From contig NZ_JAGJBZ010000001.1 of assembly GCF_020010925.1 (NCBI RefSeq), positions 3,198,501 through 3,262,500 of the forward strand: a stretch of DNA of 64,000 bases, written 5' to 3'. The notes beneath the pieces were generated by a model. That model ran no database searches. It was given only the letters and a program-made list of their open reading frames with translations, and was not told the DNA's origin. Made by a program: the position numbers and the translations under genes. Positions 14,415 to 29,672 of this stretch are shown here, one piece after another. Numbering within the stretch: the stretch's first letter is position 1; the number at the start of each line of letters is the position of its first letter. The DNA comes from Streptomyces griseiscabiei (GTDB taxonomy: Bacteria > Actinomycetota > Actinomycetes > Streptomycetales > Streptomycetaceae).

Positions 14415-14452
14415 AGCCTCCGGTCGGCCATCCGCCGGTCCGCCAAGCAGGC

Positions 14453-15226: not shown

Positions 15227-15229
15227 CCC

Positions 15230-16252
15230 TCAAGCGTCCCAGAGGGCTCCCAGCGAGACGAGGTCGCCCTGGTACTCGATGCGGTCGGCCCACTCGGTGG
15301 GCCAGGCGTCCGGCCCGTGGTAGGCGCCCGCGAAGGCACCGGCGAGGCAGGCGATGGAGTCCGAGTCGCCCGAGGTGCAGGCGGCGCGGCGCAGCGCGGT
15401 GACGGGCTCGTCGACGAAGAGCAGGAAGCACAGCAGCCCGGTGGCGAGGGCCTCCTCGGCGATCCAGCCCTCCCCCGTGGCCAGGCAGGGGTCCGTCTCG
15501 GGCGAGGGCAGCCGCAGCGCCTCCTGGAGGCGGTCCAGGGCGTCCAGGCAGTCGTCCCAGCCCCGGGCGATGTAGTGCTCGGGCGAGGGGTCCTGGCTGT
15601 AGGTCCACAGGTCGCCGAGCCAGCGCGCGTGGTAGCGGGAGCGGTTCTCATGGGCGTACGAGCGCAGCCGGCCGACCAGGCCCATCGGTTCGGCGCCCTG
15701 GGCGAGCAGCCGTATCGCGTGGGCGGTGAGGTCGGAGGCGGCGAGCGCGGTGGGGTGGCCGTGGGTGAGCGCGGCCTGCAACTGGGCGGCCCCCGCGCGC
15801 TGTTCGTCGCTGAGCGGGCCGATCAGACCGAGGGGCGCGACCCGCATGTTGGCACCGCAGCCCTTGGAGCCGATCTGGCTGGCGAACTGCCAGGGGTGCC
15901 GCTCGACCGCGAGGAGGTCGCAGGCGACCAGGCAGGTGTGGCCGGGCGCGCGGTTGTTCTCCGGGGAGCGGGACCACTCGACGAACTCCTTGCGCACGGC
16001 CCGCTCCAGGGCCTCGGGGCCGAGCGATCCACGGTCCATGGCCGCCCGCAGGCCGTGCCCGAGCGCCAGCGTCATCTGGGTGTCGTCGGTGACGATCGCG
16101 GGCCTCGGCAGCTCCATCCGCCGCCAGGGACCGAACTTGGCGAGGATCGACGGGACGTCGTCGAACTCCGTCGGGAAACCGAGGGCGTCTCCGAGGGCGA
16201 GGCCGATCAGTGATCCGGTGGCGGAGCGCTTCGTTCGGAGCGTCATGGTCAT
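15230..16252 (-). CDS. ADP-ribosylglycohydrolase family protein (DraG-like)
   Basis: The 340-residue protein has the family's metal-binding blocks: GLALGDALGFPTEF near the N-terminus, TDDT at 55-58, and the C-terminal SGDSDSIACLAGA. It should hydrolyse ADP-ribose-protein, -nucleic acid or small ADP-ribosyl bonds using a dinuclear magnesium centre. The ATG at 16252 overlaps the regulator's stop by one base (TGATG). Its place between an NrtR-like Nudix protein and a nucleotidyltransferase points to NAD/ADP-ribose metabolism or nucleic-acid ADP-ribosylation. Confidence 0.92.
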   Translation of the reverse strand: MTMTLRTKRSATGSLIGLALGDALGFPTEFDDVPSILAKFGPWRRMELPRPAIVTDDTQMTLALGHGLRAAMDRGSLGPEALERAVRKEFVEWSRSPENNRAPGHTCLVACDLLAVERHPWQFASQIGSKGCGANMRVAPLGLIGPLSDEQRAGAAQLQAALTHGHPTALAASDLTAHAIRLLAQGAEPMGLVGRLRSYAHENRSRYHARWLGDLWTYSQDPSPEHYIARGWDDCLDALDRLQEALRLPSPETDPCLATGEGWIAEEALATGLLCFLLFVDEPVTALRRAACTSGDSDSIACLAGAFAGAYHGPDAWPTEWADRIEYQGDLVSLGALWDA

Positions 16253-16977
16253 CAGGGCCGTCCTTCCGTGGTGGGGCGGAGCAGGGGCGGGTGCAGGGCG
16301 GTGGCCCCACCCGCTCGGTACAGCGCGGCGGGTTTGCCGCGACCGCCGGTCAGGCGGGCGGCGCCGGGCACCTGTTCGACGAAGCCCGGCGTGGCCAGCA
16401 CCTTGCGCCGGAAGTTGGGCCGGTCGAGCGGAGTGCCCCACACGGTCTCGTAGACCTGCTGGAGCTCGCCGAGCGTGAACTCGGGCGGACAGAAGGCGGT
16501 GGCGAGACAGGTGTACTCCAGCTTGGCGCCGACGCGTTCGTGGGCGTCGGCGAGGATGCGGTCGTGGTCGAAGGCGAGCGGACCGATGGCGTTGAACCGC
16601 AGCCACTGGGCCTGGGCCGCGTCGCCACCGCCGTGCGGGACGGGCGGGTCCGGGAACAGCGCGGCGAACGCGACGGTGACGATCCGCATCCGCGGGTCCC
16701 GCCCCGGCTCGCTGTAGGTCCGCAGCTGCTCCAGGTGGAGCCCGGCGACGTCCTTGACGCCGGTCTCCTCCGCGAGTTCCCGCCAGGCGGCCTCCTCCGC
16801 GGACTCGTTGGGCAGCACGAACCCGCCGGGCAGTGCCCAGCGGCCCTCGTACGGCTCCTGTCCGCGCTCGACGAGCAGCACCTGGAGGGTGCCCGCGCGG
16901 ACGGTGAAGACGGCCAGGTCGACGGTGACGGCGAAGGGTTCGTAGGCGTACTTGTCGTAGCCCTCGGGTGAGGTCAT
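16252..16977 (-). CDS. NrtR-like Nudix domain transcriptional regulator
   Basis: The 241-residue protein has an N-terminal Nudix domain (about 12-150) and a C-terminal winged-helix-like region (about 155-225, LGELQQVYETVWG and RPNFRRKVL), the NrtR layout. The Nudix box is complete: Gly52, Glu58 and the REL-A-EE-T-G-V block at 66-74. NrtR proteins sense ADP-ribose-type ligands and repress NAD-metabolism genes. Catalysis may be retained here. A 43-bp double palindrome lies immediately upstream and overlaps the likely promoter and ribosome-binding site, consistent with autoregulation of this operon. Confidence 0.88.
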   Translation of the reverse strand: MTSPEGYDKYAYEPFAVTVDLAVFTVRAGTLQVLLVERGQEPYEGRWALPGGFVLPNESAEEAAWRELAEETGVKDVAGLHLEQLRTYSEPGRDPRMRIVTVAFAALFPDPPVPHGGGDAAQAQWLRFNAIGPLAFDHDRILADAHERVGAKLEYTCLATAFCPPEFTLGELQQVYETVWGTPLDRPNFRRKVLATPGFVEQVPGAARLTGGRGKPAALYRAGGATALHPPLLRPTTEGRP

Positions 16978-17095: not shown

Positions 17096-18511
17096 TCAGC
17101 CGTCCGCGGACGGGGCCTGCGCGGTGAACCGGAAGTCCGGGACCCGCAGGGGCGGCATGGCCGTGCGCGGGAAGTGCATACCGGACTCGCGGGCCGGCGC
17201 CCGTTCGGTGCGGCCCGCCTCGACGGCGCGGGACAGGAGGGAGACGGGTGATTCGGCGAAGCGGAAGTCGTTCACGTACGCGGTGACGCGCCCGTCCTCC
17301 ACGAGGTGGACGCCGTCCCGGGTCAGACCGGTGAGGGTCAGGGTGCCCGCGTCCGTCGGGCGGATGTACCAGAGGCAGCCGACCAGCAGGGCGCGCCGGG
17401 TGGACCGGATCATCTCGGCCAGGGAGCGGTCCGCGCCGCCGTCCAGGACCAGGTTGCCCACGGCCGGCCGGACCGGGAGGCCCAGGCGGGCCGCGTCGGC
17501 GCGGGAGGCGGACAGGGAGGTGAGGACTCCGTCCTTCATCCAGTACGTGGCCGCCAGCGGCATTCCGTTGTCGGCGGGGTCGGCACCGGCCTGCACGGCT
17601 TCCCCGAAGGCGTCCGAGACCGCACCGTGCGAGAGCACGAACGGGCGGCACTCCAGGCCGGGTTCGCGGGGATCGCCGCGCAGGTTCAGCGGCAGCGCGG
17701 CGAGGGTGTCCCCGATCCGGGTGCCGCCGCCGGGGCGCGCGAAGACGGTGCGGCCCTCGGCGGCGTCCGCGGCTCCGCCGGCCCGGTACAGGGCGGTCAT
17801 CAGGTCGGCCACGGCGGCGGGAGCGAGCAGCACCTCGTACCGGCCTGGCGGCAGCTCCCGGTGCGGCAGCGGCTGCCGGACGCGTCCGGTGGTGGCGGCC
17901 TCCAGTCCGGGCAGGTCCATGCCGTGGAAGCCGTCCGCGACCGCGCCCGCCCATGCCGTACGGGAGCCGTCGGGGGTGCGGGCGTAGAGGTCGAGCGTGC
18001 TGGTCCCGAGGCGGTGGCGCCTGCGGACTCCGGCCGAGGTGCCCAGCCACGCCGTGCCGGTCCGGTGCTGTGCGAACCCGTGCAGGGCACCCTGGGAACG
18101 GCCCCGCGCGCGGACCAACTCCGGGATCAGCGCGGACAGTCGATCACGGGCGGGGACGGCTTCGGGGAGTCCGGCGGTGTCGAACGCGCCGTCGCCGCGG
18201 ATCGGCTCGGGCGCCGCGGTCCCCGTCCCCCCGGCCGCCGCCGGGGCGTCGGTCGGTGCCTCCGAGGCGCGTACCAGTTCCTCCAGGTGATGCCGGTCGC
18301 CGACGCTTCCGGAGACCGCCGCGCCGCCGCCCGGCCCGGCGCTGATCACCGTGACCCGGCGGGTGCCGCTCGCGCCGTTCGCGGTGATCTCGTCGCCCGC
18401 CCAGCGCAGCCACGCCGTGTCCGTGTCGTCGACGATCACGTCGCAGTGCGCGGCCCGGGACAGGGAGAGGGCGCGCTCGACGATCTCCTGCGGCGGCAGC
18501 GGGGTGTTCAA
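17096..18511 (-). CDS. TldE/PmbA-family protein
   Basis: The 471-residue protein has the TldD/PmbA fold pattern (HCDVIVDDTDTAWLRWAGDEIT near the N-terminus, conserved FRF and GCLWYIR segments toward the C-terminus) but no HExxxH zinc motif. It therefore corresponds to the non-catalytic TldE/PmbA partner. It begins 2 nt after the tldD stop and should form the TldD-TldE protease with it. Such proteases cleave short unfolded peptides and remove leader peptides in microcin maturation. Here the pair closes a nine-gene operon with two ATP-grasp ligases, so it may trim or hydrolyse a ligated intermediate. Confidence 0.88.
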   Translation of the reverse strand: MNTPLPPQEIVERALSLSRAAHCDVIVDDTDTAWLRWAGDEITANGASGTRRVTVISAGPGGGAAVSGSVGDRHHLEELVRASEAPTDAPAAAGGTGTAAPEPIRGDGAFDTAGLPEAVPARDRLSALIPELVRARGRSQGALHGFAQHRTGTAWLGTSAGVRRRHRLGTSTLDLYARTPDGSRTAWAGAVADGFHGMDLPGLEAATTGRVRQPLPHRELPPGRYEVLLAPAAVADLMTALYRAGGAADAAEGRTVFARPGGGTRIGDTLAALPLNLRGDPREPGLECRPFVLSHGAVSDAFGEAVQAGADPADNGMPLAATYWMKDGVLTSLSASRADAARLGLPVRPAVGNLVLDGGADRSLAEMIRSTRRALLVGCLWYIRPTDAGTLTLTGLTRDGVHLVEDGRVTAYVNDFRFAESPVSLLSRAVEAGRTERAPARESGMHFPRTAMPPLRVPDFRFTAQAPSADG

Positions 18512-18513
18512 CG

Positions 18514-20064
18514 TCAGTTCTCCTCACGGGAGTTGAGCACATTCACCTGGCGGAAGAGGGCCGCGGGGCTGCCGTGGCCGGCGGGGGCGGCCTGGAGCGG
18601 GCGTCCCTTGCCGCAGTGGAAGGCGCCGCACAGGAGATACGTCTGAGGGCCGCCCACCGCTTCCAGGGAGCGCCAGAAGTCCGTGGTCGTCGACTGGTAG
18701 GCGACGTCCCCGACCTGTCCGACGAGGCGTCCGGCGCGGATGCGGTGGAAGCGCTGGCCGGTGAACTGGAAGTTCTGCCGCCGGGTGTCGATGGACCAGG
18801 AGCCGTCGCCCACGACGTACAGGCCGTCCCGCACCCGGGAGATCAGTTCCGCCGTGTCCGGTCCGTCGGGGGCGGGCCGCAGGGAGACGTTCGGCATCCG
18901 CTGGAGCGGCTCCCGGTCGAAGGCGCCCGCGAAGGAGCAGCCGTTGGAGCGCTGGTACCCGGCGCGGGCCGCGCCCGCGCGGTCGACCTGGAACCCGCTC
19001 AGGACGCCCGCGCGCACCAGGTCCCAGCGCTGCGCGGCCACCGCCTCGGCGTCGTAGCCGATGGTGGCGAGACCGTGCGGGGCGGTGCGGTCGGCGGTGA
19101 CGTTCATGGCGGGCGAGCCGTAGCGCAGGGTGCCGACCGCGTCCGGCGAGGCGAACGAGGTGCCCGCGAAGGACGCCTCGTGCCCGAGGGCCCGGTCCAG
19201 TTCGGTGGCGTGGCCCACGGTCTCGTGCAGGGTCAGCCACAGGTTCGTGGGGTCGATCACGAGGTCGTACGTGCCCGGCCGCACCGTCGGGGCGGCCGCC
19301 TTCTCGGCCAGCAGGGCGGGCAGTGCGGCGAGTTCACCGTCCCAGTCCCACCCGGTGCCGAGCAGATACTCCCAGCCCCGGCCCGTGGAGGGCGCCGTGC
19401 TGCGCAGGCTCACCAGCCGGCCGCCGGCCGGGTCCACGGTGTGGGCGGTGAACTCCGGCAGCACCCGCACCCGTTGCTGGAGGACGCGGTTGCCCGCGGT
19501 GTCCGCGAGGAACGTGCACTCCCGTACGGCCTGGAGCGCGGCGTCCGCGTGCCGGACCCCGAGGGCGGCGAGGAGCCGGGCGCTGTACTCGCCGAGCACG
19601 GCCGTCCGCTCCTGCCCGGACACCTCGAACGGGTCGGTCTCGTACGCGGAGATCCACGTCCGCTCCCCGTACACGGGCTCCGGCGCGAGGTCGACGCGAC
19701 GGCCGCCGAGGCGGCGGGCGTCCCCGGCGGCCCGCACCGCCTCCTCGACCGCGCCGACGGCCGCGTCGGCACCGCCCGCGGAGCGTGCCGCGAAACCGCG
19801 GGCGCCCTCGTGCAGGACCCGCACGGAGAACCCGGCGCTCACCGTGTCGGACGCGCCGGCGGGACGGGCGTCGCGCAGCCGCCAGGACGCGTCGCGTACG
19901 TGCTCGGCACGGAACTCCGCGTGCCCGACGCCGAGTTCACGGGCCCGTTCGAGCGCGGCCTCGGCCACGCGGCGCTGCTCGGCGTGGTCGAACTGCGGGC
20001 TGATCGCGCGGGCGGACTCGTGGGCGGGCTTGTGGCCGGAGTCGCGGGTGGTCGCACGGCCCAT
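18514..20064 (-). CDS. TldD-family metalloprotease
   Basis: The 516-residue protein carries the TldD zinc motif HETVGH at 280-285, followed by ELDR, and conserved GDGSWSIDTRRQNFQFTG and CGKGRP segments near the C-terminus. It is expected to form the active subunit of a heterodimeric zinc protease with the next gene. The ATG at 20064 was chosen for the AAGGAG about 10 nt upstream; earlier in-frame codons would run through the 3' end of the MFS gene. It follows the exporter by 28 bp. The substrate is unknown. Confidence 0.9.
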   Translation of the reverse strand: MGRATTRDSGHKPAHESARAISPQFDHAEQRRVAEAALERARELGVGHAEFRAEHVRDASWRLRDARPAGASDTVSAGFSVRVLHEGARGFAARSAGGADAAVGAVEEAVRAAGDARRLGGRRVDLAPEPVYGERTWISAYETDPFEVSGQERTAVLGEYSARLLAALGVRHADAALQAVRECTFLADTAGNRVLQQRVRVLPEFTAHTVDPAGGRLVSLRSTAPSTGRGWEYLLGTGWDWDGELAALPALLAEKAAAPTVRPGTYDLVIDPTNLWLTLHETVGHATELDRALGHEASFAGTSFASPDAVGTLRYGSPAMNVTADRTAPHGLATIGYDAEAVAAQRWDLVRAGVLSGFQVDRAGAARAGYQRSNGCSFAGAFDREPLQRMPNVSLRPAPDGPDTAELISRVRDGLYVVGDGSWSIDTRRQNFQFTGQRFHRIRAGRLVGQVGDVAYQSTTTDFWRSLEAVGGPQTYLLCGAFHCGKGRPLQAAPAGHGSPAALFRQVNVLNSREEN

Positions 20065-20092
20065 GCGGGGGCTCTCCTTCAAGGCCTGGCGG

Positions 20093-21427
20093 TCACGTCG
20101 TGACCGTGGGTTCGGGTGTCTCCCGGGGCGGGGGCGAGCCCCGGTGCACGTCGTCGTCCGGGCCCGGGTCGAGGTCACCGTCCGCCGTGTCCCGTTCCGC
20201 CGTGTCCTGTTCCGCCGGGCCCCGCTCGGCCGGTACGCCGCGCACCGCGCCGGTCATCAGCACCGCCACGGCCAGGGCGCAGCCCGTCAGCAGCCACCAC
20301 AGGGTGTTCGCGCCGTGGTCCAGCGCGCTGGTGACCAGGAGCGGGGTCATCGCGTTGGCCAGGCCGATGAACAGCTGGTTGAACGCCAGGTAGGAGCCGC
20401 GCCGCTCGTCCGGGGAGAGGGCGGTCAGCAGCGTCAGTACGGCCTGGGAGGCCAGGAGTTCACCGACCGTGTAGATCACCATGGCGGCGATCAGGACGAC
20501 GGTGCGGGGCGTCGGCGCGAGGTGGGCCGCGGCGGCGAGGGCGGCGGGCAGGGCGATGTGCAGGACCGCGCCCACCGCGACCAGGACGGCGGGCCGCACC
20601 CGTTCCACCCGGTGCGCCACGGGGACCTGGAACACGGCCAGGACCACGGTGTTCAGGGCGAACAGCACACTCGTCGTCCACGCGGGCGCGCCGACGTCGC
20701 GCACCAGGTGCACCGGCAGCGCCACCTCCACGCTCACCGCGATGATCCACAGACCGGCGCCCGCGGCGACCACCCCGCGGAACGGGCCGCTGCGCCAGGG
20801 CCGGGCCTTCTCCGCCGTACCGGACCCGACCCCGGCCTTCGCCGGACGGGACGCGGGCAGCGCGACGTACAGCAGGGCGGCGAGCGCGATGCACACCGCG
20901 TTGCCCGCCCCGACGCCGTGCAGCACCTCCGGCGACGCGGAGGCGGTCAGCCCCGCCGCGAGCGCGCCGAGCCCGAACCCGGCGTTGAACAGCGCACGGG
21001 ACAGCGCCATCCAGCGTCCCGGTGGCTCCTCGCCCGCCAGCACCTTCGCCAGCGCCGGGGTGGCCGCCTGCTCGGTGCGCATGGTGAGCGCGACCAGCAC
21101 GCTCAGCACCAGGAACGGCCAGAACGAGTCCACCAGGAGGTACCCGGCGAACGCGGACGCCCGCACCACCGTGCTGACCAGCAGCACCTGCCGGGGGCCG
21201 AACCGGTCGATCAGCCGTCCCACGTACGGAAGCAGCGGCAGGGCGAGCAGCGCGGCCACCGTGAGGGCGGCGCCGATCCGGGTGAGCGAGGTGTCCAGGA
21301 CGGACTGGAAGAACAGCAGGGAGAACGGGTAATAGATGCCCATGCCCACGGAGTTGGCGAAGGTGGCGCCCGCGAAGGCGGGCACCCCGGGCCCCGTCGG
21401 CAGCGCCCGGCGCAGTTGCCTCAGCAC
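20093..21427 (-). CDS. MFS transporter, probable product exporter
   Basis: The 444-residue protein has about twelve hydrophobic segments, a GRLIDRFGPR loop between helices 2 and 3 typical of the major facilitator superfamily, and a hydrophilic acidic C-terminal tail (about 400-444). The likely GTG start at 21427 overlaps the ATP-grasp stop by 7 nt, so it is coupled to the ligase. By position it probably exports the pathway product or confers self-resistance. Substrate specificity cannot be read from sequence. Confidence 0.87.
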   Translation of the reverse strand: MLRQLRRALPTGPGVPAFAGATFANSVGMGIYYPFSLLFFQSVLDTSLTRIGAALTVAALLALPLLPYVGRLIDRFGPRQVLLVSTVVRASAFAGYLLVDSFWPFLVLSVLVALTMRTEQAATPALAKVLAGEEPPGRWMALSRALFNAGFGLGALAAGLTASASPEVLHGVGAGNAVCIALAALLYVALPASRPAKAGVGSGTAEKARPWRSGPFRGVVAAGAGLWIIAVSVEVALPVHLVRDVGAPAWTTSVLFALNTVVLAVFQVPVAHRVERVRPAVLVAVGAVLHIALPAALAAAAHLAPTPRTVVLIAAMVIYTVGELLASQAVLTLLTALSPDERRGSYLAFNQLFIGLANAMTPLLVTSALDHGANTLWWLLTGCALAVAVLMTGAVRGVPAERGPAEQDTAERDTADGDLDPGPDDDVHRGSPPPRETPEPTVTT

Positions 21428-22695
21428 GGCGCGTCGACGGCGGGCGCCAGCATGACGGCCGCGGTGTCCGCCCAGCGGGCCGCCTCGGCGGGGGTGTCCG
21501 CCCGGACCACCACATGTCCGAGGACGTCGGCGTTGCTGCGCGGCCGGCGCACCTCGCCTCCCGGAGCCGCGTACAGGTCGACGGCGACCACACCGGGCAG
21601 CCGCCGTACCAGGTCCTCGCCCTCGAACCCGCGCAGTACGCCGTCGTCGGCCGCCGTCAGATAGCGGGACGCGGCGGCCCGGGTGTGCTCCACCACGACC
21701 TCGGGCTCCTGCCCGACGTGCAGCCTGACGACCTCGCGCAGCAGGTCGAGGCCGGTGGCCTCGTGGATGATCCGGCCGATCTGGGCGCCGCCCATCCGGG
21801 CGTTGATCTCCACCAGGCGGGGCCCGTCGGGGGTCACCTTGATCTCGACGTGCGCGGCGCCGAAGTCGTGGCCGATCGCCTTGAGCGCGTCGAGCGCGGC
21901 CCGGGTGACCTCGTCGCGCACGGAATCGGGAAGCTGGGTCGGGAACGTCTCGCCGGTCTCCACGAAGTACGGGTGCGCGGTGAGCGCCTTGTCGGTGACG
22001 CCGACGACCTGGGGCCCCTTGGCGGTGGTGAGCACCTCCACGCTCAGCTCGTAGCCCGTCAGATACTCCTCCACCAGCACACCGCCGGGCTTCGCCATGC
22101 CGCGCATGTCGACCGGGGACGCCGTCAGTTCGTCGTAGTGCGCGGCCACCTCGTCGGTGTCGCGGCACAGCCGCACCCCGATGCTCGCGGACTCGGTGAG
22201 CGGCTTGACGACACAGGGGAAGCCGATCGACCGGGCGGCGGCGACCGCGTCCTCGCGTGCCGTCGCCCGGCTGAACCGCGGTGCGGGGACGCCGAGTTCG
22301 GCGCAGACCTCGCGGGTCCGCAGCTTGTTGCGGGCGGTCCGCGCGGCCTCGGGGTCGAGGCCGGGCAGACCGAGCCGGCGGGCGGTCTCGGCGACCACGG
22401 GGACGTAGTAGTCGATGACCGCGAGGACCCCGGCGAGGTCGCCCCGCTCGGCGTACGGGCGCAGCGCCTCGGTGACGGAGGCGCTGTCCCGGGTGTCGGC
22501 GTCCACGATCGCGTGCACGGTCCGCTCGATGAGGGAGCGCGCGGCCTCGGACGTGGCGTAGCGGCTGAGGTCGTCGGTGACGAGGATCGGGCTCAGTCCC
22601 AGCTCGCGGGCGCGCAGCAGGGGCTGGAGGCCGTACTCGCCCCGCCCGGTCTCGACCACGGCGATCAGGGGCCCGTGGGGGCGGGCGTCAGACAT
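21421..22695 (-). CDS. ATP-grasp ligase
   Basis: The 424-residue protein has an ATP-grasp fold: ATP-binding Lys164 (CVVKP), a serine-rich loop (TESASIGV), and the metal-binding residues Glu284, Glu296 and Asn298 (VEIKV and VEINARMGG). Such enzymes activate a carboxylate as acyl phosphate and join it to an amine, often an amino acid. It overlaps the acyltransferase upstream by 8 nt and the MFS gene downstream by 7 nt. Together with the circularly permuted ATP-grasp two genes upstream it suggests two successive amide-forming steps. The substrate is unknown. Confidence 0.9.
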   Translation of the reverse strand: MSDARPHGPLIAVVETGRGEYGLQPLLRARELGLSPILVTDDLSRYATSEAARSLIERTVHAIVDADTRDSASVTEALRPYAERGDLAGVLAVIDYYVPVVAETARRLGLPGLDPEAARTARNKLRTREVCAELGVPAPRFSRATAREDAVAAARSIGFPCVVKPLTESASIGVRLCRDTDEVAAHYDELTASPVDMRGMAKPGGVLVEEYLTGYELSVEVLTTAKGPQVVGVTDKALTAHPYFVETGETFPTQLPDSVRDEVTRAALDALKAIGHDFGAAHVEIKVTPDGPRLVEINARMGGAQIGRIIHEATGLDLLREVVRLHVGQEPEVVVEHTRAAASRYLTAADDGVLRGFEGEDLVRRLPGVVAVDLYAAPGGEVRRPRSNADVLGHVVVRADTPAEAARWADTAAVMLAPAVDAPC

Positions 22696-23812
22696 GGGTG
22701 TTCCTCGAGGGTCGGGTCAGCGGCAGCAGATAGGAGTGCTGGGTCTCGGCGGTGCAGCCGCGGGAGAGCTTGGCCTCCTCGCTGCCGAGGCCGTAGTGGA
22801 TGGCTTCGATCCCGAACCGGGCCGCCGCCTCGACGGGGAAGTAGTAGAGGGTCTCGAAGTACAGCGGGAGCCGGTCCTGGTAGGCGTAGTCGAAGCCCGC
22901 CTGCCGCGCGTACCAGTGGCTGCCGAACCGCAGCAGGGTGCCGAAGCCCCGGATGTCGCCGTCGCCGACCGCCAGCGCCACCTGGGCGTCGGCACCGAAC
23001 GCGGCGATCATCTCGTGCAGCACCTGCTCGGTCTGCCCGGCGGTCCAGGTGTGGCCGTACTTGGCCATCAGCTCCGCCTCCAGCGCGCCGAGCCGGGGCA
23101 CGAGACCGGCGCTCAACGGCTCGATCCGCAGTTCGATGCCGGCCTCCCGCACCCGGCGCCGCTCGGTGAGGATCCGGCGGCGGCGGCGCGCGGAGACCAG
23201 GGTCAGATACTCGTCGAAGCCGCCGGGGCCCACGCGCAGCGAGCTGTAGCGGCCCGAGTCGTGGTGCGCGTAGCCCCGTTCGCCGAGGATCTGCCGCAGC
23301 AGGGTGTCGCCGTCCTCCACGAAGGGGTACGCCACCGAGGCCGCGCCCCGCTCGGCGGCGAGCCGTTCGGCCTCGGCGACCAGCGCCTCCACCTGGTCCC
23401 GGCCGGTGCCGGCGAGCCTCGGCACCCGGCTGCGCCCCATGTGCCGCCCTCCGCACACCAGCGTGGGCAGCAGGCTCTCGGCGGGGCTCGCGGGCAGCGC
23501 CGCGAGGATCTCGGCGGCGCCCTCGCGACCGGCCTCGGCGGCGGCCCGCAGCATGGTGTCCGGGCGGCCGAGGACCCAGGGCGCGGTGTCGTCGGCCAGG
23601 GCGGTGGCGAGCCCGGCGACCGTACGGCCGTCCTCGTCGAGCAGCAGATAGCGCATCGGGGAGCCCGCGGTCCGCTCCGCGACGGCCAGCCAGCGTTCAC
23701 CGAGGAAGAGGTCCTCGGGCCGCAGCAGTTCGGCCCAGTCGGCGCGCGGGAGGTCGGCGGCCCGGGAGAACGCGCGCACCGCGGGCGGCGCGACGGTCGG
23801 CTCGGTGCTCAT
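22688..23812 (-). CDS. FemAB/GNAT-like acyltransferase (peptidogalycan-biosynthesis type)
   Basis: The 374-residue protein resembles FemAB-like or DUF482 proteins, with a duplicated GNAT fold. Visible pieces include FLGERWLAVAE, GFDEYLTLVSARRRRRIL and the C-terminal YYFPVEAAARFGIEAIHYGLG followed by AKLSRG. Members transfer aminoacyl or acyl groups to amines. The ATG at 23812 follows GGAAGGA. A 46-bp gap separates it from the circularly permuted ATP-grasp upstream, and it overlaps the downstream ligase by 8 nt. Aminoacyl transfer from tRNA is possible but cannot be shown from sequence. Confidence 0.8.
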   Translation of the reverse strand: MSTEPTVAPPAVRAFSRAADLPRADWAELLRPEDLFLGERWLAVAERTAGSPMRYLLLDEDGRTVAGLATALADDTAPWVLGRPDTMLRAAAEAGREGAAEILAALPASPAESLLPTLVCGGRHMGRSRVPRLAGTGRDQVEALVAEAERLAAERGAASVAYPFVEDGDTLLRQILGERGYAHHDSGRYSSLRVGPGGFDEYLTLVSARRRRRILTERRRVREAGIELRIEPLSAGLVPRLGALEAELMAKYGHTWTAGQTEQVLHEMIAAFGADAQVALAVGDGDIRGFGTLLRFGSHWYARQAGFDYAYQDRLPLYFETLYYFPVEAAARFGIEAIHYGLGSEEAKLSRGCTAETQHSYLLPLTRPSRNTHV

Positions 23813-23858
23813 GACGGTGGTCCTTCCGAGCGGTGGGGAGGGGTGTCCGTGGGCCACC

Positions 23859-25394
23859 TCATCGCGCGGTCCCGACGGTGAAGACGCCGGTGGTACGGGT
23901 CAGCGGGTTGGAGCCGTAGTTGACGACGGCGGAGGCGGAGGCCGGCGCGGCGCGGACGTCGGTGCCGGCGTAGCCCTGCGGCGTGAGGAACAGGCCCCAG
24001 GCCGCGACCCAGTCGGAGCGGGCGCCGGTGGCGGGGTCGAGGACGGGCTCGGCGCGGGGCAGGACGCGACGCTGGACGATCCAGCGGTTGCCCAGTCCGG
24101 TGAGGGGGCCGGTGGCCTCGGACAGCCGGTCCCGGAGCAGGCCTGCCCAGTGGTCCGGTGCGCACTCCCAGCCGGGGATCACGCCGGTGCCCCCGAAGTC
24201 GCGCAGCGGCTTGAGGAGCAGCTCGGTGCGGTGTTCCCGGCAGAAGGACAGCAGGTCGGTGACCGTCTCACCGGGGTGCGGGCCGGGTGTGGGCGGGCCG
24301 TCGGCGAGGAGCCGGGTCCATGGGAGAAGCCGGTCGGTGAGGGCGCGTTCGGCCTCGGTGAAGGGTGTGGCGGGGTCGGAGAGGAGCGCGAGGGCGCCCT
24401 TGTTGGAGTAGAGGGAACTGTCCATGGGCGTCCACAGGACGGCTCGGCCCTCTTCGTGGGCGCGGAAGGCGAGTTCGGCGCGGGCGGCGGAGGCCGGGTC
24501 CGCGCAGAGGTCGTCGACGGTGAAGAAGCGCAGGACCACATCGACGGGTGCGCCGTCGAGACGGAGCCGGTCACCCTGCTCGGTGAGGCCGTCCAGTTCA
24601 CCGAGGGTGAAGGGCAGGCCGAGGTCCCGCATCATCTCGGCGAGGGCGTGCAGCAGATGACCGAAGGCGGCCAGTCCTCCCGGGGCGCAGACCAGGCCGA
24701 CCCGGGGCTCCCGGCCGCCGCCGGTGAGGGGCAGGGCCGCCTCGCGCAGAGCGGTGGCCATGCGTTCCCCGATGTGGACGTGGTCCAGCCCGTGCTCGGC
24801 GGCGAAGGCCGCGAACGCGGGGTGGGTGAGCAGGGCCCGCTGCATCTGGGAGCGGTCGGTGCCACCCAGGTCGCTGGCTATGTTGAACTCCAGCAGCTTG
24901 AACGCGCCGCCGTCGTGATAGAGGTCGGCACGGCCGTAACGGGTGGCCCGGCCGCGGGCGTCGGCGAACCGGGAGATCACCGCGGCCCGGTCCGGGGCGA
25001 TGCCCAGGGCGTCGCAGTACCGGGCCGTGTCCCCGCCGAACAGCCGCCCCGGCAGCGAGACGAGCAGTGCGAACAGGTCCTGGACATCGGCCGCGGCCCG
25101 GCTCAGCTCGGGACCGTCCACGAAGAGCGGGCGGGAGAGCATCCGCGCCCCCCAGCACTCCTGGAAGGCCGGGGGGAAGACGGTCTCCTGGACGGCGTCG
25201 GCGAGCCGGGGGTCGCGGAGATACGCCTCGGTGACGGCGGCGGCGGTGCCGGCGACCGCCGTGGCGTGGACGGCGGCCGGCTCCGGTGCCGTCACCCGGG
25301 CCGTCTCCGATACCGCCACGTGCGCCGTCCCCGGTGCCGTCTCGCGCACCGCCTCCGCCGCCGTCCCCGGCGTCATGACCGGTCTGGGCGTCAC
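23859..25394 (-). CDS. Circularly permuted ATP-grasp / glutathionylspermidine-synthase-like protein
   Basis: The 511-residue protein has an Ala/Thr-rich N-terminus (1-55), then a fold with KLLEFNIASDLGGTD at about 167-180, VGLVCAPGG, and LLLKPLRDFGGTGV in the C-terminal half. These match circularly permuted ATP-grasp proteins, which make amide bonds. The GTG at 25394 overlaps the SIS gene stop as GTGA; an ATG six codons later is an alternative. It is probably the first ligase of the pathway. The acceptor and donor are unknown, though the neighbouring gamma-glutamylcyclotransferase makes a glutamyl group plausible. Confidence 0.82.
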   Translation of the reverse strand: MTPRPVMTPGTAAEAVRETAPGTAHVAVSETARVTAPEPAAVHATAVAGTAAAVTEAYLRDPRLADAVQETVFPPAFQECWGARMLSRPLFVDGPELSRAAADVQDLFALLVSLPGRLFGGDTARYCDALGIAPDRAAVISRFADARGRATRYGRADLYHDGGAFKLLEFNIASDLGGTDRSQMQRALLTHPAFAAFAAEHGLDHVHIGERMATALREAALPLTGGGREPRVGLVCAPGGLAAFGHLLHALAEMMRDLGLPFTLGELDGLTEQGDRLRLDGAPVDVVLRFFTVDDLCADPASAARAELAFRAHEEGRAVLWTPMDSSLYSNKGALALLSDPATPFTEAERALTDRLLPWTRLLADGPPTPGPHPGETVTDLLSFCREHRTELLLKPLRDFGGTGVIPGWECAPDHWAGLLRDRLSEATGPLTGLGNRWIVQRRVLPRAEPVLDPATGARSDWVAAWGLFLTPQGYAGTDVRAAPASASAVVNYGSNPLTRTTGVFTVGTAR

Positions 25395-26434
25395 AGCTTC
25401 ACCGACCGGATGGCCGATGCCCAGGGCTCCGCCTCCAGGTGGGTGAGGTCGGGGCTGGCGCCGGTGCGGGCGGCGGCCAGGGAGACCAGTCGCTGGAAGG
25501 GGACGACCGACACCAGCGGACGGACGAGATCGGGCACGGCGGCGAAGGGCAGCGCGGCACCGGGGTCGTCGGCGCAGTGGTGGACGGGGGCGCCCAGCGC
25601 GCGCAGGACCCGCTCCAGGTCGGCGGTGCGGCCGGCGTCGGGTCCGGCGGGGCGCAGCAGGAAGCCGGCGGTGGTCGCGGAGAAGACGGCGGGGGTGCCG
25701 TGCAGGGCGAACTCGGTGTGCAGGGCCTCGGCCCAGCGGTAGGTGCCCTCCTTGATCTTCAGCGCGGCCTCGGCGGCGGTGATCGCGTCGAGTCCGGTGC
25801 CGGTGACCAGAACCGGTCCGGCGGCGTCGGCCAGGGCGTCCACGGCCTCCGGCGCGAGGGGGAGTTCCAGGGTGCGGGACAGTGCCCCGGGGACCTGGGC
25901 GAGCGCGGCGGTCAGCGGGGCCCCCTCCTCGCCGAGGGCGGTGGCGACCAGGCGGGCGAGCAGGGTCAGCGCGGTGGTGTAGGAGACCGTGTGGGTGCTG
26001 GCCGCCTCCTGGGGGCAGGTGCGCAGGACCGTGTCGGCGACGGGTTCGGCCGGGCCCTCGCCGGTGACGGCGACCGTGGTGGCACCGGCCTCGGCGGCGC
26101 GGCGGAGCACGTCGTTGGGGCAGGCCTTGGTGCCCCGGTGGCTGACCACCACGATCTGGTCGGCGGCGGTGACCCCCTCGGTCAGGGCCAGGTCGTGGGC
26201 GTCGAGGGCGGCGGCCCGTACCCGTCCGCCGGTCAGCAGCCGGACCCAGGCGGCGGCGGTCCGGCAGGCGTGCAGGGAGGTGCCGATGCCGGTGAAGACC
26301 AGGGGACGCGCGGGGTCGAGGACCGGGACCGGGGTCGACAGGAGGGCGGCCACGGCCTCGGGCTGGGAGGCGACATGGCGGTCGTAGGCGGCGGACCCGC
26401 CGGGCTCCGGGGCGGTGGGGGGCTGGGTGGTCAT
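25391..26434 (-). CDS. GlmS-like SIS domain protein lacking the amidotransferase domain
   Basis: The 347-residue protein corresponds to the isomerase half of glucosamine-6-phosphate synthase, with two SIS domains. GTSLHACRTA near residue 50 replaces the GlmS GTSYHA segment. KIKEGTYRWAEALHTEFALHG corresponds to the GlmS LKLKE...HAEA...ELKHGP stretch. No N-terminal glutamine amidotransferase domain is present. The ATG overlaps the GNAT stop (ATGA). It may bind a sugar phosphate or other phosphorylated amino compound. A separate amidotransferase partner would be expected, and none is complete in the window. Confidence 0.85.
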   Translation of the reverse strand: MTTQPPTAPEPGGSAAYDRHVASQPEAVAALLSTPVPVLDPARPLVFTGIGTSLHACRTAAAWVRLLTGGRVRAAALDAHDLALTEGVTAADQIVVVSHRGTKACPNDVLRRAAEAGATTVAVTGEGPAEPVADTVLRTCPQEAASTHTVSYTTALTLLARLVATALGEEGAPLTAALAQVPGALSRTLELPLAPEAVDALADAAGPVLVTGTGLDAITAAEAALKIKEGTYRWAEALHTEFALHGTPAVFSATTAGFLLRPAGPDAGRTADLERVLRALGAPVHHCADDPGAALPFAAVPDLVRPLVSVVPFQRLVSLAAARTGASPDLTHLEAEPWASAIRSVKL

Positions 26435-27006
26435 CGGGCGGGCTCCTCTGCGGGTATGTGGGCGGCGAGCAGGTCGTCGAGCGGTGTGCCGTCGTAGCGG
26501 GCGCAGTTGGCGGGGAACGTGCGCTGGAAGATGTCCAGGTCGGTCAGCCGGCCCAGCTTGTAGCCGACTTGGCGCAGGACGCCCTCGTGGCGGTAGCCGG
26601 CGCGCAGCACCATGCGGCGGGAGGGCTCGTTGCCGGAGGAGATGAAGGCGATCACCGTGGACATGCCGGCCTGCTCCGCCAGTTCGGTGAGGCGGACGCA
26701 CAGGGCCGAGCCGACACCGCGGCCACGGGCGTCGGGCGAGAGGTAGACCGAGATCTCGGCGCTGGCCAGATAGCCCCTGCGTGAGGCGAAGGGACTGAGC
26801 GTGCCGTATCCGGCGAGCCGTCCGTCCTGCTCGGCGGCCAGGGCGGGGTAACGGCCATGGTGGGCTGACAGCCAGCCGTGCAGGTCGTCGAGCGCCTTCT
26901 CTTCATGATCCATGGTCGCGTCGGTGTGCCGGATGGCGTGATTGATCGTAGACAGTACCCCAGGAAGATCAGCTTCGGTCAGCGGGCGCAGGACGGGGGC
27001 GCTCAT
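26431..27006 (-). CDS. GNAT N-acetyltransferase (Pat-like)
   Basis: The 191-residue protein has the acetyl-CoA pyrophosphate loop RGRGVGS at 94-100 and the VLRAGYRHEGVLRQVGYKLGR segment typical of phosphinothricin-type acetyltransferases. It overlaps both neighbours by 4 nt. In this operon it could acetylate an amine intermediate, as protection during assembly or as self-resistance. Specificity is not visible from sequence. Confidence 0.9.
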   Translation of the reverse strand: MSAPVLRPLTEADLPGVLSTINHAIRHTDATMDHEEKALDDLHGWLSAHHGRYPALAAEQDGRLAGYGTLSPFASRRGYLASAEISVYLSPDARGRGVGSALCVRLTELAEQAGMSTVIAFISSGNEPSRRMVLRAGYRHEGVLRQVGYKLGRLTDLDIFQRTFPANCARYDGTPLDDLLAAHIPAEEPAR

Positions 27007-27971
27007 CGGGAGACCTCCCCGAGGACGGCGTCGGCGCGACGGCGGTAGACGCCGACGCCCTCGGAGCTGGGGATCAGCCGCTGGAGGTCGTAGTGGGTGT
27101 CCAGGTGGCCGTGGAAACGGGCGTACTGGGCCTGGTTGTTGGCGATACGTCCGGCGAAGTAGCCGTTGTCGGTGAGGTTGCCGAGCAGCATGTTGTGGGC
27201 GATCAGCAGACCGCCGGGGCGCAGGGCGGGGGTGGTGGCCTCCATGATCGGGAAGTAGATCGCCTTGTCGATCAGGTCGGGGTCCATGCCCTCGGGGGCG
27301 CGGTGCGGGGCCGGGCCCTCGGCGTCCAGCACACACAGGTCGACCGGGTCGAGACCGCGGCCGTGGGCGATGGCGTCGGTGGTGGCGAACTCGACCCCGT
27401 CGGCGAGACCGAGGGCGGTGAGGTTGCGTTCGGCCAGCGCCATGGTGCCGGGGTCGATGTCGATCAGGGTGGCGGTGCCGCCGGCCGCGCGGATGCCGGG
27501 CAGCGCCCAGACCGCCCAGTACCCGTAGTACGAGCCGGGGAAGACGGTGCGGCGGGGCGCCAGCAGATGACAGAGCGCGAACAGCAGCCGGGCCTCCTCC
27601 GGGAAGATGTAGGTGGCTCGGTCCTCGTGGTCGAACCGCTCGGCGACCCGCTCCCGCAGCGCCTCGAACGCGTCCTCCGGATAGGCCGTGGAGGCGATCA
27701 CCCCGTCCCGCTCCAGCCCCTCCAGCACCTGGGCGACGAAGGCGCGTTCGTCCACGGGGAACCGGGTGGAGAGGTTGAACTGGTCCTCGTTCAGCCCGAC
27801 GTCCTCGGGGCGCAGACGACCGGAGCCCAGCCAGGAGCAGTAGTCGGCGCGGCTGAGGAGACCGCCGCGGAAGCTCTGGTACTCGGGGACGGCACGCAGG
27901 GCGGCGTCGATGAGGTCGTGGGCGACCCCGCCGGTCGCACGGGGGGCGTCGGGACGGGCGACGGTGGTCAC
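27003..27971 (-). CDS. Class I SAM-dependent (O-)methyltransferase-like protein, first gene of the operon
   Basis: From the GTG at 27971, preceded by AAGGAG, this encodes 322 residues. A helical N-terminal part (about 1-125) precedes a Rossmann-like domain with FPGSYYGYWA at about 144-153, the acidic strand end LIDIDPG (169-175), LCVLDAEGP, and GGLLIAHNMLLGN near the C-terminal part. This resembles metal-dependent O-methyltransferases, although the first glycine loop is unusual. In-frame ATGs a few codons upstream lack as good a ribosome-binding site. It heads the coupled nine-gene operon and faces the gamma-glutamylcyclotransferase gene across a 132-bp divergent gap. Confidence 0.82.
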   Translation of the reverse strand: MTTVARPDAPRATGGVAHDLIDAALRAVPEYQSFRGGLLSRADYCSWLGSGRLRPEDVGLNEDQFNLSTRFPVDERAFVAQVLEGLERDGVIASTAYPEDAFEALRERVAERFDHEDRATYIFPEEARLLFALCHLLAPRRTVFPGSYYGYWAVWALPGIRAAGGTATLIDIDPGTMALAERNLTALGLADGVEFATTDAIAHGRGLDPVDLCVLDAEGPAPHRAPEGMDPDLIDKAIYFPIMEATTPALRPGGLLIAHNMLLGNLTDNGYFAGRIANNQAQYARFHGHLDTHYDLQRLIPSSEGVGVYRRRADAVLGEVSR

Positions 27972-28103
27972 GCGTGGACTCCTTGTCATGGGGCTGCTCA
28001 TGGGGGTCATGGGGCTTCTCGTGGGGTGGTGCCCGGCGGTCCGGGCAGGCGGCATAGGCTCCGGCGGGAAGTACCGGCTGCCTTTCACGTGGGAGTACGA
28101 GCG
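27972..28103. promoter_or_regulatory. Divergent promoter region of the nine-gene operon and the GGCT gene
   Basis: This 132-bp gap must hold the promoter of the minus-strand operon and that of the plus-strand gamma-glutamylcyclotransferase gene. I see ribosome-binding sites on both sides (AAGGAG and GGGAG) but no clear -35/-10 pair. Confidence 0.45.
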
Positions 28104-28562
28104 ATGCCGACGGCACATCGACAGACGTACGAGCTGCCCCTGTTCGTCTACGGGAGCCTGTCGTACGCCGAGGTGCGGCGGGCACTGTTGGGGCGGGTCA
28201 CCGGGTCCCGCCCGGCGGCGGTGACCGGCTGGCGCAACGCGGCCCTGCGCGACCGTGTCTTCCCCGGTCTGGTGTCCCGGTCCGGGAGCCGGGTCACCGG
28301 ATGCCTGCTGACCGACCTCGACCCCGCCGAGCGCGCCCTGCTGGACGTGTACGAGGGCCCGATGTACGAGGCCCGCGTCCTCCCCCTCGAAGGCGGAGGC
28401 TCCGCTGTGGCCTATGTGTGCGTCGACGCCTCGCTGGTCCTGGAGAACGACTGGGACCGGGAGCACTTCGGCCGGGAGCTGCTGCCGGGCTACACGGCGG
28501 GGGTGGTCCGCTGGCTGGCGTCCCGAGAGGCGGCGCTCACCCGTACCGGATCCGGCGGATGA
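28104..28562 (+). CDS. Gamma-glutamylcyclotransferase (AIG2/GGCT-like) family protein
   Basis: The 152-residue protein has the family's VYGSLSY loop at about 15-21 and a candidate catalytic Glu84 in VYEGPMYE. GGCT enzymes release gamma-glutamyl groups from amines or amino acids as 5-oxoproline. GGGAG lies 8 nt before the ATG. It is the only plus-strand gene between the minus-strand operon and the diiron oxygenase, facing the operon divergently. A role in removing a glutamyl protecting or carrier group is an attractive inference. Confidence 0.88.
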   Translation: MPTAHRQTYELPLFVYGSLSYAEVRRALLGRVTGSRPAAVTGWRNAALRDRVFPGLVSRSGSRVTGCLLTDLDPAERALLDVYEGPMYEARVLPLEGGGSAVAYVCVDASLVLENDWDREHFGRELLPGYTAGVVRWLASREAALTRTGSGG

Positions 28563-28637
28563 GCCGGCGACGGGCCCGCCGGCCGGTCCCCTGACCGGTC
28601 GTGCCGATGGATGGTCCGCTCTCGACGGCGTTCATCG

Positions 28638-29672
28638 TCACACCAGTTCGTACGACTCGAAGGCGGCCCGGATCTCGGGGTCGTCCAGCGACCCGAGCCG
28701 TCTGAAGTGCTGGACCGTCTGCTGGGACGCGTCACGGGCGGTCTTGCGCACCAGACTCTCCGGGAACACCTCGGCCAGCACCTGTTCGACGGTGTCCCGG
28801 TCGAGCCCGTACCCGGTCAGCTCCTCGCGGAAAGCCGGCAGGTCCGGCCGGAGGAAGGCGTCCACCATCATCGGCGCGAGGGTGCCGATCACCCGCCGCT
28901 CGGCCGGGTCCGACTGCGCCCACAGCTCCTTGAGGAAGAGCGAGAAGTAGGTGTGGTGGCGGCCCTCGTCCATGGCGTGGTCGCGCACCACCTCACGGAC
29001 CGTGGGCACCACCCGGGGGTCGTCCGGGACCTCGCCGAGGGAGCCCGAGATCAGCGTCTCGGAGACGATCACGAAGACCAGCTCGGCCAGCACCCGCCAG
29101 TCCGGGTGCTCCTGCTGGATCATCGCCAGCCGGGTCAGGAAGTACGGCTCGGCGGGCAGCCGCGCGGCGACACCGGTACGGGCCTGAGCCTGTCTCATCA
29201 GATCGACGGAGAACAGGGCGTGGTACGCCTCGTCGCAGTAGATCCGGTAGGCGTCGAACCGCATGTCCGGATGGAGACGCAGGCCCACTGTTCCCTGGGC
29301 GATACCGAGCGCGGTGCGATTGACGACGATCTGTTCCAGCTTCGCCGTGAAATCCAGGTAACGGTAGAGGTGCTGGATCAGTATCCGGTCGAATAGTTCA
29401 GGGCGAAGATCCCGTACCAGCTCATGGCGGGCGACCGGAACCAAGTCGGGCGAAAAGAAATACTGCCCTTCGGTTTCGCCCGGCAGTTCCCGCCGGGGAG
29501 TCGCACGTACCGAGGCGCGTTTGTCCCAGCCACGGAACGGGCTGCGATAACCGTCAGCCGGTTCCGGGTCGTCGGCGCCCGGGACCTGGGCCTCGGAATC
29601 CTTGACCAGCAGGCGCTTGGGACAGTAACTGACCGCGGTACAACCGGTGAAGAGCCCCACGATGCCACACAT
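28638..29672 (-). CDS. AurF-type diiron N-oxygenase with amidotransferase-like N-terminal tip
   Basis: The 344-residue protein has a complete set of candidate iron ligands in AurF order: Glu113, Glu148 and His151 (CDEAYH), Glu205 (VSETLIS), His232, Glu236 and His239 (HAMDEGRH). AurF-type enzymes oxidise aryl or alkyl amines to hydroxylamine, nitroso or nitro groups. Strangely the protein opens with MCGIVGLF, the hallmark start of class II glutamine amidotransferases, and then departs from that family. GGGGGAA before this ATG supports the start. Convergent with the GGCT gene, it is probably the oxidative enzyme of the neighbouring operon. Confidence 0.88.
   Translation of the reverse strand: MCGIVGLFTGCTAVSYCPKRLLVKDSEAQVPGADDPEPADGYRSPFRGWDKRASVRATPRRELPGETEGQYFFSPDLVPVARHELVRDLRPELFDRILIQHLYRYLDFTAKLEQIVVNRTALGIAQGTVGLRLHPDMRFDAYRIYCDEAYHALFSVDLMRQAQARTGVAARLPAEPYFLTRLAMIQQEHPDWRVLAELVFVIVSETLISGSLGEVPDDPRVVPTVREVVRDHAMDEGRHHTYFSLFLKELWAQSDPAERRVIGTLAPMMVDAFLRPDLPAFREELTGYGLDRDTVEQVLAEVFPESLVRKTARDASQQTVQHFRRLGSLDDPEIRAAFESYELV

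What the first reader, a model, noticed from the sequence alone, without database searches (positions are those of the whole stretch)
17096..29672. Candidate undescribed biosynthetic system: diiron N-oxygenase, two ATP-grasp ligases, acyltransferases, SIS protein, methyltransferase, exporter and TldD/TldE
Nine minus-strand genes from 27971 to 17096 are coupled by overlaps or short gaps and flanked by a gamma-glutamylcyclotransferase and an AurF-type oxygenase. The families add up to a pathway: activation and ligation (two ATP-grasps), acyl transfer (GNAT, FemAB-like), methylation, N-oxidation, export and peptide-bond trimming by TldD/TldE. There is no PKS, NRPS or RiPP precursor, so usual cluster-finding rules could miss it. 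I know of no characterised pathway with this set. The product could be a small N-oxygenated dipeptide-like metabolite (hydroxylamine, nitroso, nitro or N-N bonded), which is inference.
Basis: inference. Interest (0 to 1): 0.85.

Follow-up and report, generated by a model that had tools for sequence, protein, structure and literature searches.

The report
Undescribed N-oxidised amino-acid peptide gene cluster
A soil bacterium carries an inserted block of eleven genes, whose core is shared as a rare unit with several other actinomycetes, that probably makes a small peptide containing a nitrogen-oxidised amino acid, and I found no described pathway that matches it.

Summary
Nine tightly coupled minus-strand genes (27971-17096), a gamma-glutamylcyclotransferase (GGCT) and an AurF-type diiron enzyme form one unit. 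In 6 of 6 related genomes read, the same chromosomal site lacks these genes, so 17096-29672 is an inserted block. Its core (MT, AurF, GNAT, SIS, second ligase, GGCT) recurs in Streptomyces, Micromonospora and Nocardiopsis; one Saccharothrix locus lacks AurF. The second 'ATP-grasp' has no Pfam match, but its predicted fold is eukaryotic-type glutathione synthetase. The 'methyltransferase' (MT) has a catechol-O-methyltransferase fold, with Trp where the SAM motif usually has Ser. Beside 2 of 8 clusters lie methylthioadenosine (MTA) salvage genes. The GNAT's nearest named families are phosphinothricin/arsinothricin acetyltransferases.

Best reading: SAM gives an aminobutyrate unit with release of MTA, the diiron enzyme oxidises nitrogen, the amino acid is acetyl- and/or gamma-glutamyl-protected, FemAB and L-amino-acid ligase make a peptide for export, and TldD/TldE remove a peptide or acetyl group. 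This would work like bialaphos with an N-oxygenated glutamate mimic. No chemistry is shown; plain O-methylation is the main rival. Ten paper searches listed no matching cluster. A conserved MCG...GC...CP N-terminus on this AurF clade is unexplained.

The parts
28638..29672 (-). AurF-type diiron N-oxygenase homologue with conserved MCG..GC..CP N-terminus
   Evidence: PF11583 108.2 bits, cut-off 29.6; PDB hit AurF 3chh 45.6 bits; E113, E148, H151, E205, H232, E236, H239 invariant in 33 of 33 rows (their role as ligands is recalled)
28104..28562 (+). gamma-glutamyl cyclotransferase (GGACT/AIG2 family)
   Evidence: PF06094 58.2 bits, cut-off 22.8 (on 28086-28562); antisense gene downstream of AurF also in G158 (L036) and L054
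27003..27971 (-). MT: SAM-enzyme of catechol-O-methyltransferase fold with N-terminal extension; reaction unknown
26431..27006 (-). GNAT acetyltransferase, nearest named families phosphinothricin/arsinothricin acetyltransferases
   Evidence: NF040503 98.1 and NF040502 96.5 bits, both below equivalog cut-offs; PAT 5t7d 85.6 bits, behind an unassigned GNAT at 98.3; R75, Y78, E83 (numbered without Met1) invariant in 8 of 8
25391..26434 (-). SIS-domain protein related to the isomerase half of GlmS
   Evidence: PF01380 39.9 bits; PRK00331 53.6 bits over residues 24-329; isomerase Lys/Glu/His columns kept, phosphate-loop SQSGET replaced by SHRGTK (roles recalled)
23859..25394 (-). Second ligase: eukaryotic-type glutathione synthetase / glutathionylspermidine synthetase fold (ATP-grasp)
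22688..23812 (-). FemAB-like aminoacyltransferase (ORF may start at 23857)
   Evidence: PF04339 49.7 bits, cut-off 27
21421..22695 (-). L-amino-acid ligase-type ATP-grasp
   Evidence: ATP-grasp_4 71.9, LAL_C2 68.4 bits; PDB L-amino acid ligase BL00235 91.1 bits
20093..21427 (-). MFS exporter (start codon uncertain)
   Evidence: PF07690 129 bits on 20093-21424; GTG seen at 21427
18514..20064 (-). TldD-like catalytic subunit (start uncertain)
   Evidence: PmbA_TldD_3rd 92.9 and 1st domain 35.2 bits; HETVGH at residue 280; PDB TldD 51.3 bits
17096..18511 (-). TldE-like subunit, no HExxxH
   Evidence: PmbA_TldD_3rd 81.8 bits

Best explanation
The block 17096-29672 is an inserted biosynthetic cluster for an exported small peptide built around a nitrogen-oxidised, SAM-derived amino acid. 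Shown: one inserted unit of these protein families, with a core conserved in other genera. Inferred: (1) MT uses SAM not as methyl donor but as source of the 3-amino-3-carboxypropyl (2-aminobutyrate) unit, by transfer or by ring closure, releasing MTA; (2) AurF oxidises the attached nitrogen (hydroxylamine, nitroso or nitro level); (3) the GNAT acetylates the alpha-amine, as Pat does for phosphinothricin, for protection and self-immunity; (4) the glutathione-synthetase-like ligase and GGCT add and remove a gamma-glutamyl or similar group; (5) FemAB and the L-amino-acid ligase add one or two amino acids and the MFS protein exports the peptide; (6) TldD/TldE hydrolyse the final amide (acetyl or peptide). 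SIS isomerises an amino-carbonyl intermediate of unknown identity. The product would be a glutamate/glutamine mimic delivered as a peptide, working like bialaphos but with N-oxygenated nitrogen in place of phosphorus.
For: Unit: the site lacks the cluster in 6 of 6 relatives read; core shared by 8 clusters including the window, AurF in 7 of them; fusions MT-GNAT (P0126) and GNAT-SIS (P0296). MTA: salvage genes beside the cluster of G158 (mtnA, B, D, C, aminotransferase, P) and of Micromonospora ALFpr18c (mtnA, B, D, C, P; no aminotransferase); acireductone dioxygenase is in 35 of 150 Streptomyces, so two linked cases in 8 have P about 2e-5 under a crude model; MT is the only SAM-type enzyme I recognised in the shared core. 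MT motif: W at the GYS serine position in 30 of 30. GNAT: nearest named families are ArsN1 and PAT; one substrate Arg, a Tyr and the catalytic Glu of PAT/ArsN1 are kept in 8 of 8 (placed by my own counting). Phosphinothricin and arsinothricin are 2-amino-4-substituted butanoates, and ArsL is predicted to take that group from SAM. AurF: seven residues recalled as the diiron ligands invariant in 33 of 33. Ligase fold and GGCT.
Against: No activity was tested. MTA salvage is beside only 2 of 8 clusters (flanks of different length); in G158 four other called genes lie between the second ligase and mtnB; in Micromonospora mtnP matches in two pieces; the window's own genome has its ARD gene about 145 kb from the window. 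The fold neighbours shown are ordinary methyltransferases, and residues at the COMT metal site are largely kept (one Asp is His; positions recalled), which fits methylation of a chelating N-OH. AZE-synthase signatures are absent. GNAT scores lie below the ArsN1 and PAT cut-offs, and ArsN1 Arg75 is not kept. In G221 the SIS-to-TldE block has no MT, AurF or PAT-like GNAT and sits beside an actinopyridazinone-like hydrazine gene set, so the block can serve other building blocks. TldD/TldE were found only in the window and G221. The role of SIS is unexplained.
Confidence: 0.33

Rival explanations
1. MT is an ordinary cation-dependent O-methyltransferase. AurF N-hydroxylates an amino acid or peptide nitrogen and MT O-methylates the N-OH, which chelates the metal like a catechol; the ligases then make an N-methoxy peptide.
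For: The fold matches shown are methyltransferases of the O-methyltransferase family, the tRNA enzyme TrmR included, and D216 plus H259/N260 sit where COMT binds its metal (position recalled). AurF lies in the fetched DNA of 10 of 13 MT loci, as expected for hydroxylation followed by methylation.
Against: MTA-salvage genes at two clusters have no role here; the SAM motif has Trp in place of the usual Ser in 30 of 30 rows.
Confidence: 0.3
2. MT is a convergent azetidine-2-carboxylate synthase (SAM to AZE plus MTA), and AurF oxidises the ring nitrogen.
For: A two-gene core needing only SAM; MTA salvage near two clusters; MT-fold AZE synthases exist.
Against: AzeJ signatures PFNxxGN and RxxYYxxC are in 0 of 30 rows and FY in 3 of 30. 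A PAT-like enzyme would need a primary alpha-amine.
Confidence: 0.12
3. The product is a ribosomally tagged metabolite: the conserved N-terminal MCG...GC...CP peptide of AurF is itself a modified peptide or carrier, FemAB adds amino acids from tRNA, and TldD/TldE release the product, as in ammosamide biosynthesis.
For: The motif is in 103 of 120 listed homologues; other clusters with this AurF encode a PqqD-family protein (checked on one, L071); TldD/E release in ammosamide.
Against: Pfam shows no PqqD in the window's cluster proteins; TldD/TldE were found in 1 of the 8 clusters with MT, the window's own; AurF relatives in L059 and L061-L064 lack the motif.
Confidence: 0.05

Closest known systems
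Phosphinothricin tripeptide (bialaphos) and arsinothricin pathways
   Same: Acetyltransferase whose nearest named families are PAT and ArsN1; proposed 2-amino-4-substituted butyrate; peptide form and exporter (bialaphos details recalled; arsinothricin passages read)
   Different: No phosphonate or arsenic genes and no radical-SAM ArsL recognised among the eleven genes; diiron N-oxygenase, SIS protein and ligases in place of an NRPS
AurF-type diiron N-oxygenases
   Same: AurF family over the Pfam cut-off with full ligand set
   Different: Far below the AurF equivalog cut-off (44.2 against 620 bits); N-terminal three-Cys motif; no aromatic-amine genes recognised in the cluster
Bacilysin/dapdiamide-type L-amino-acid ligase pathways
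   Same: LAL-type ATP-grasp making peptides without NRPS (BacD 53.3 and DdaF 42.6 bits, far below their cut-offs)
   Different: Different amino-acid core; additional FemAB and GSH-synthetase-like ligase
Actinopyridazinone-type hydrazine clusters (NMO Apy11 and hydrazine-forming Apy9 on DABA)
   Same: In G221 an NMO, a cupin-MetRS protein and a DABA aminotransferase adjoin the same SIS-to-TldE block (that Apy9 is a cupin-MetRS is recalled)
   Different: The window's cluster has none of these genes; AurF and MT stand in that place
Butirosin gamma-glutamyl protection (BtrJ/BtrG, recalled)
   Same: ATP-dependent ligase with GGACT-family cyclotransferase
   Different: No acyl carrier protein recognised among the eleven genes; the ligase has glutathione-synthetase fold

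Membership tests
AurF-type diiron N-oxygenase | PF11583 domain over cut-off | tested here: met
   108.2 against 29.6 bits
AurF-type diiron N-oxygenase | four Glu and three His diiron ligands | tested here: met
   E113, E148, H151, E205, H232, E236, H239 invariant in 33 of 33; ligand assignment recalled
AurF-type diiron N-oxygenase | oxidation of an amine | not testable with these tools
   needs enzyme assay
4-aminobenzoate N-oxygenase (AurF equivalog) | NF045603 cut-off 620 bits | tested here: not met
   44.2 bits
Phosphinothricin/arsinothricin N-acetyltransferase | equivalog cut-offs NF040502 300, NF040503 170 bits | tested here: not met
   96.5 and 98.1 bits
Phosphinothricin/arsinothricin N-acetyltransferase | catalytic Glu and substrate-contact residues of PAT/ArsN1 | tested here: inconclusive
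   Glu, one Arg (ArsN1 Arg77) and a Tyr kept in 8 of 8 cluster GNATs, placed by counting in the alignment and residues; ArsN1 Arg75 is not kept; other contacts were not compared
Azetidine-2-carboxylate synthase | FY, PFNxxGN, RxxYYxxC signatures | tested here: not met
   3, 0 and 0 of 30 rows; signatures from PMC11794875
COMT-type methyltransferase | fold | tested here: met
COMT-type methyltransferase | methyl transfer giving SAH | not testable with these tools
   needs assay; MTA-salvage linkage in 2 of 8 clusters points the other way
ATP-grasp, L-amino-acid ligase type | ATP-grasp plus LAL_C2 domain | tested here: met
   71.9 and 68.4 bits
Glutathione / glutathionylspermidine synthetase | fold of the family | tested here: met
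Glutathione / glutathionylspermidine synthetase | Pfam domain match (GSP_synth, CP_ATPgrasp) | tested here: not met
   none for the window protein; homologue L056 only 19 bits to CP_ATPgrasp_2, cut-off 32
GlmS (glucosamine-6-phosphate synthase) | N-terminal glutaminase plus phosphate-binding SIS loop | tested here: not met
   isomerase half only, phosphate loop replaced
TldD/TldE heterodimer | HExxxH in TldD, absent in TldE | tested here: met
   HETVGH at 280 in TldD, none in TldE

The most novel reading that the evidence does not exclude
MT founds a new group of SAM enzymes on the catechol-O-methyltransferase fold that release MTA and hand the aminobutyrate unit to an AurF-oxidised nitrogen, giving an N-oxygenated counterpart of phosphinothricin that is acetyl-protected, peptidylated and exported by an NRPS-free cluster whose core is spread over several actinomycete genera.
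Probability: 0.22. Interest if true: 0.85.

Novelty: new variant of a known kind. Interest (0 to 1): 0.62.

Why it matters
It is an inserted, rarely occurring pathway (its MT marker was found in 2 of 392 sampled genomes of the genus, one of them the window's own) with no PKS, NRPS or separate precursor-peptide gene among its eleven genes, so cluster rules built on those genes may miss it. If the reading is right, it would give a new glutamine-pathway antimetabolite with an N-oxygenated warhead and a new SAM reaction on a common methyltransferase fold. A single in vitro question, MTA or SAH from MT, decides between the main readings.

Tried and rejected
Azetidine synthase: signatures tested and absent. 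AzeJ and VioH are not among the 25 sequence hits listed to E 1 or the 50 fold rows shown, which does not exclude them. DABA argument from G221: first taken as strong support (note), then weakened, because N-hydroxylated DABA is the known actinopyridazinone precursor, so that arm may be a separate neighbouring cluster. Second-ligase family as a guide to function: 43 of 246 genomes of the genus, the own included, have a relative, but contexts differ widely (PKS, NRPS and tryptophan genes by reading; L038-L048 printed of L034-L053 called), so it says little. GATase reading of the AurF N-terminus: the likeness to class II glutaminases ends after about ten residues when read against a GlmS start (L054); read by eye only. 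Defence system: one hit, MT to mad2 (51.4 bits), among five proteins scanned, taken as a generic methyltransferase match. Plasmid search with MT: 25 records, none covering 80% of the query. FemAB PDB search gave nothing under E 0.3.

Papers: PMC11794875, PMC2922099, PMC6465285, PMC8552651, PMC11705231, PMC10491745 and PMC12424672 were read as found passages only; others were seen only in search listings. The TldD/TldE deacetylase review was seen only as a title in a reference list; its look-up was not held.

Full report

2. It is one inserted block. The neighbour scpB was found in 13 of 13 genomes, the own genome included. I fetched the region in 6 of the other 12. In all 6, none of the cluster genes lies between rluB and the Nudix/ADP-ribosylglycohydrolase/RlaP group: nothing between in G002; one, two, two and four other called genes in G001, G004, G005 and G007; in G003 the glycohydrolase comes next and no Nudix gene was called. 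The cluster coordinates thus coincide with an insertion.

3. Its core is a unit elsewhere. A named-genome scan with the MT profile gave 13 loci. AurF lies in the fetched DNA of 10 of 13 (not L056, L065, L066); GNAT, SIS, the second ligase and GGCT all lie in 6 of 13 (L054, L055, L056, L057, L058, L060). With the window and G158 that makes 8 clusters, 7 with AurF. In G158 GNAT and SIS are one called reading frame, the SIS part only 39% identical. The database also lists an MT-GNAT fusion (P0126) and a GNAT-SIS fusion (P0296). In L060 a PKS follows by reading. More distant loci have MT and AurF without the rest: beside an NRPS condensation domain by reading (L059), or beside a LeuRS-like protein (L061-L063), with a GGCT-family protein in L061. 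The MT marker is rare: 1 of 394 sampled genomes of the class (the own genome only) and 2 of 392 of the genus (the own and G158).

4. Accessory part. FemAB, the LAL-type ligase, the MFS protein and TldD/TldE vary. G158 and L055 have FemAB, ligase and MFS; L054 has two FemAB copies; in L056, L057 and L058 FemAB and the ligase were not found and the exporter is of another kind. TldD/TldE were found only in the window and G221. G221 carries SIS-ligase-FemAB-LAL-MFS-TldD-TldE at 53-85% identity without MT, AurF or PAT-like GNAT. In their place stand an NAD_binding_9 protein and a tandem GNAT, and the divergent arm encodes a DABA aminotransferase (TIGR02407 615.4 bits, cut-off 552.2), an N-monooxygenase and a cupin-MetRS protein. 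That arm resembles actinopyridazinone genes (Apy11 and Apy9; passage in PMC11705231), so it may be a separate cluster; I give it little weight.

5. The SAM enzyme. The model of MT (pLDDT 93.8) has the catechol-O-methyltransferase fold. In the SAM-binding GxxxGYS motif the Ser is Trp in 30 of 30 rows. That this Ser contacts the SAM carboxylate in COMT is recalled. Beside two clusters, in different genera, lie genes of MTA salvage. In G158: mtnA (340.1 bits, cut-off 279), mtnB (134.0, just below its cut-off of 137.05), ARD (92 bits, cut-off 27), acireductone synthase (208.1, cut-off 128.1), an aminotransferase and MTA phosphorylase (442.6, cut-off 306); mtnA precedes AurF and the others follow the second ligase after four other called genes. 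In Micromonospora: mtnA-, B-, D-, C- and P-like genes, no aminotransferase found, mtnP matching in two pieces. ARD occurs in 35 of 150 sampled genomes of the genus, one below the cut-off. With that rate and 15 kb either side, two or more of 8 has P about 2e-5. The model is crude: flanks differ in length, Micromonospora rates were not measured, and the window's own genome has its ARD about 145 kb from the window. MTA is the by-product of aminocarboxypropyl transfer or SAM cyclisation (review passages), not of methylation.

6. The acetyltransferase. Nearest named families are ArsN1 (98.1 bits) and PAT (96.5), both below equivalog cut-offs. PDB matches include PAT 5t7d (85.6 bits), behind an unassigned GNAT (98.3). 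By my counting in that alignment, the general-base Glu88 of PAT and the Arg77 and Tyr80 of ArsN1 that contact substrate (passages in PMC6465285) correspond to E83, R75 and Y78 (numbered without Met1), invariant in 8 of 8 cluster GNATs. ArsN1 Arg75 is not kept; other contacts were not compared. Phosphinothricin and arsinothricin are 2-amino-4-substituted butanoates; ArsL is predicted to take that group from SAM.

7. Other steps. The seven residues recalled as AurF's diiron ligands are invariant in 33 of 33 rows. SIS aligns with the isomerase half of GlmS, keeps its Lys/Glu/His columns, loses the SQSGET loop, and the C-terminal Lys is not conserved (roles recalled). The GSH-synthetase-like ligase with GGCT suggests gamma-glutamyl chemistry (inference). 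TldD keeps HExxxH; such a heterodimer releases a dipeptide in ammosamide biosynthesis, and the family is also described as N-deacetylases in a title seen there. The window's genome has further TldD-family matches about 74 kb away, so this pair is a second, cluster-borne one.

8. Reading. Together these suggest a SAM-derived, N-oxygenated 2-aminobutyrate, acetyl-protected, peptidylated, exported. Every chemical step is inference. The strongest rival is plain O-methylation of an N-hydroxy group.

9. Novelty. Ten full-text searches (two of them on candidate chemistry) in an open-licence library listed no paper on this gene set. Most subscription papers are missing from it, so 'undescribed' is provisional.

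Noticed in passing
28638-29672, AurF N-terminus; This AurF clade starts M-C-G-[IT]-V-G-[LM]-F-x-G-C-x5-C-P (103 of 120 listed homologues match a strict pattern; several misses look like misplaced starts). Function unknown.
   Followed up: partly
   Followed up: partly
L061, L062, L063: Contigs of a Ramlibacter MAG, an actinobacterial MAG and a Burkholderia draft pair MT and AurF with a LeuRS-like class I synthetase, and L062 also has an argininosuccinate-synthase-like gene.
   Followed up: partly
L034-L035 (G221 contig C78): An actinopyridazinone-like arm (DABA aminotransferase, NMO, cupin-MetRS; KAS genes by reading) adjoins the SIS-to-TldE block, a possible hybrid cluster.
   Followed up: partly
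13710-16977: Two RlaP-family nucleotidyltransferases, an ADP-ribosylglycohydrolase and an NrtR-type Nudix regulator lie next to the insertion; in the six relatives read the glycohydrolase and at least one RlaP gene recur in 6 and the Nudix gene in 5.
   Followed up: no
P0335 and other distant SIS relatives: SIS proteins 51-56% identical to the cluster's SIS occur in archaea and other phyla as proteins of about 335 residues, some named GlmS by their source; their function is unclear.
   Followed up: no
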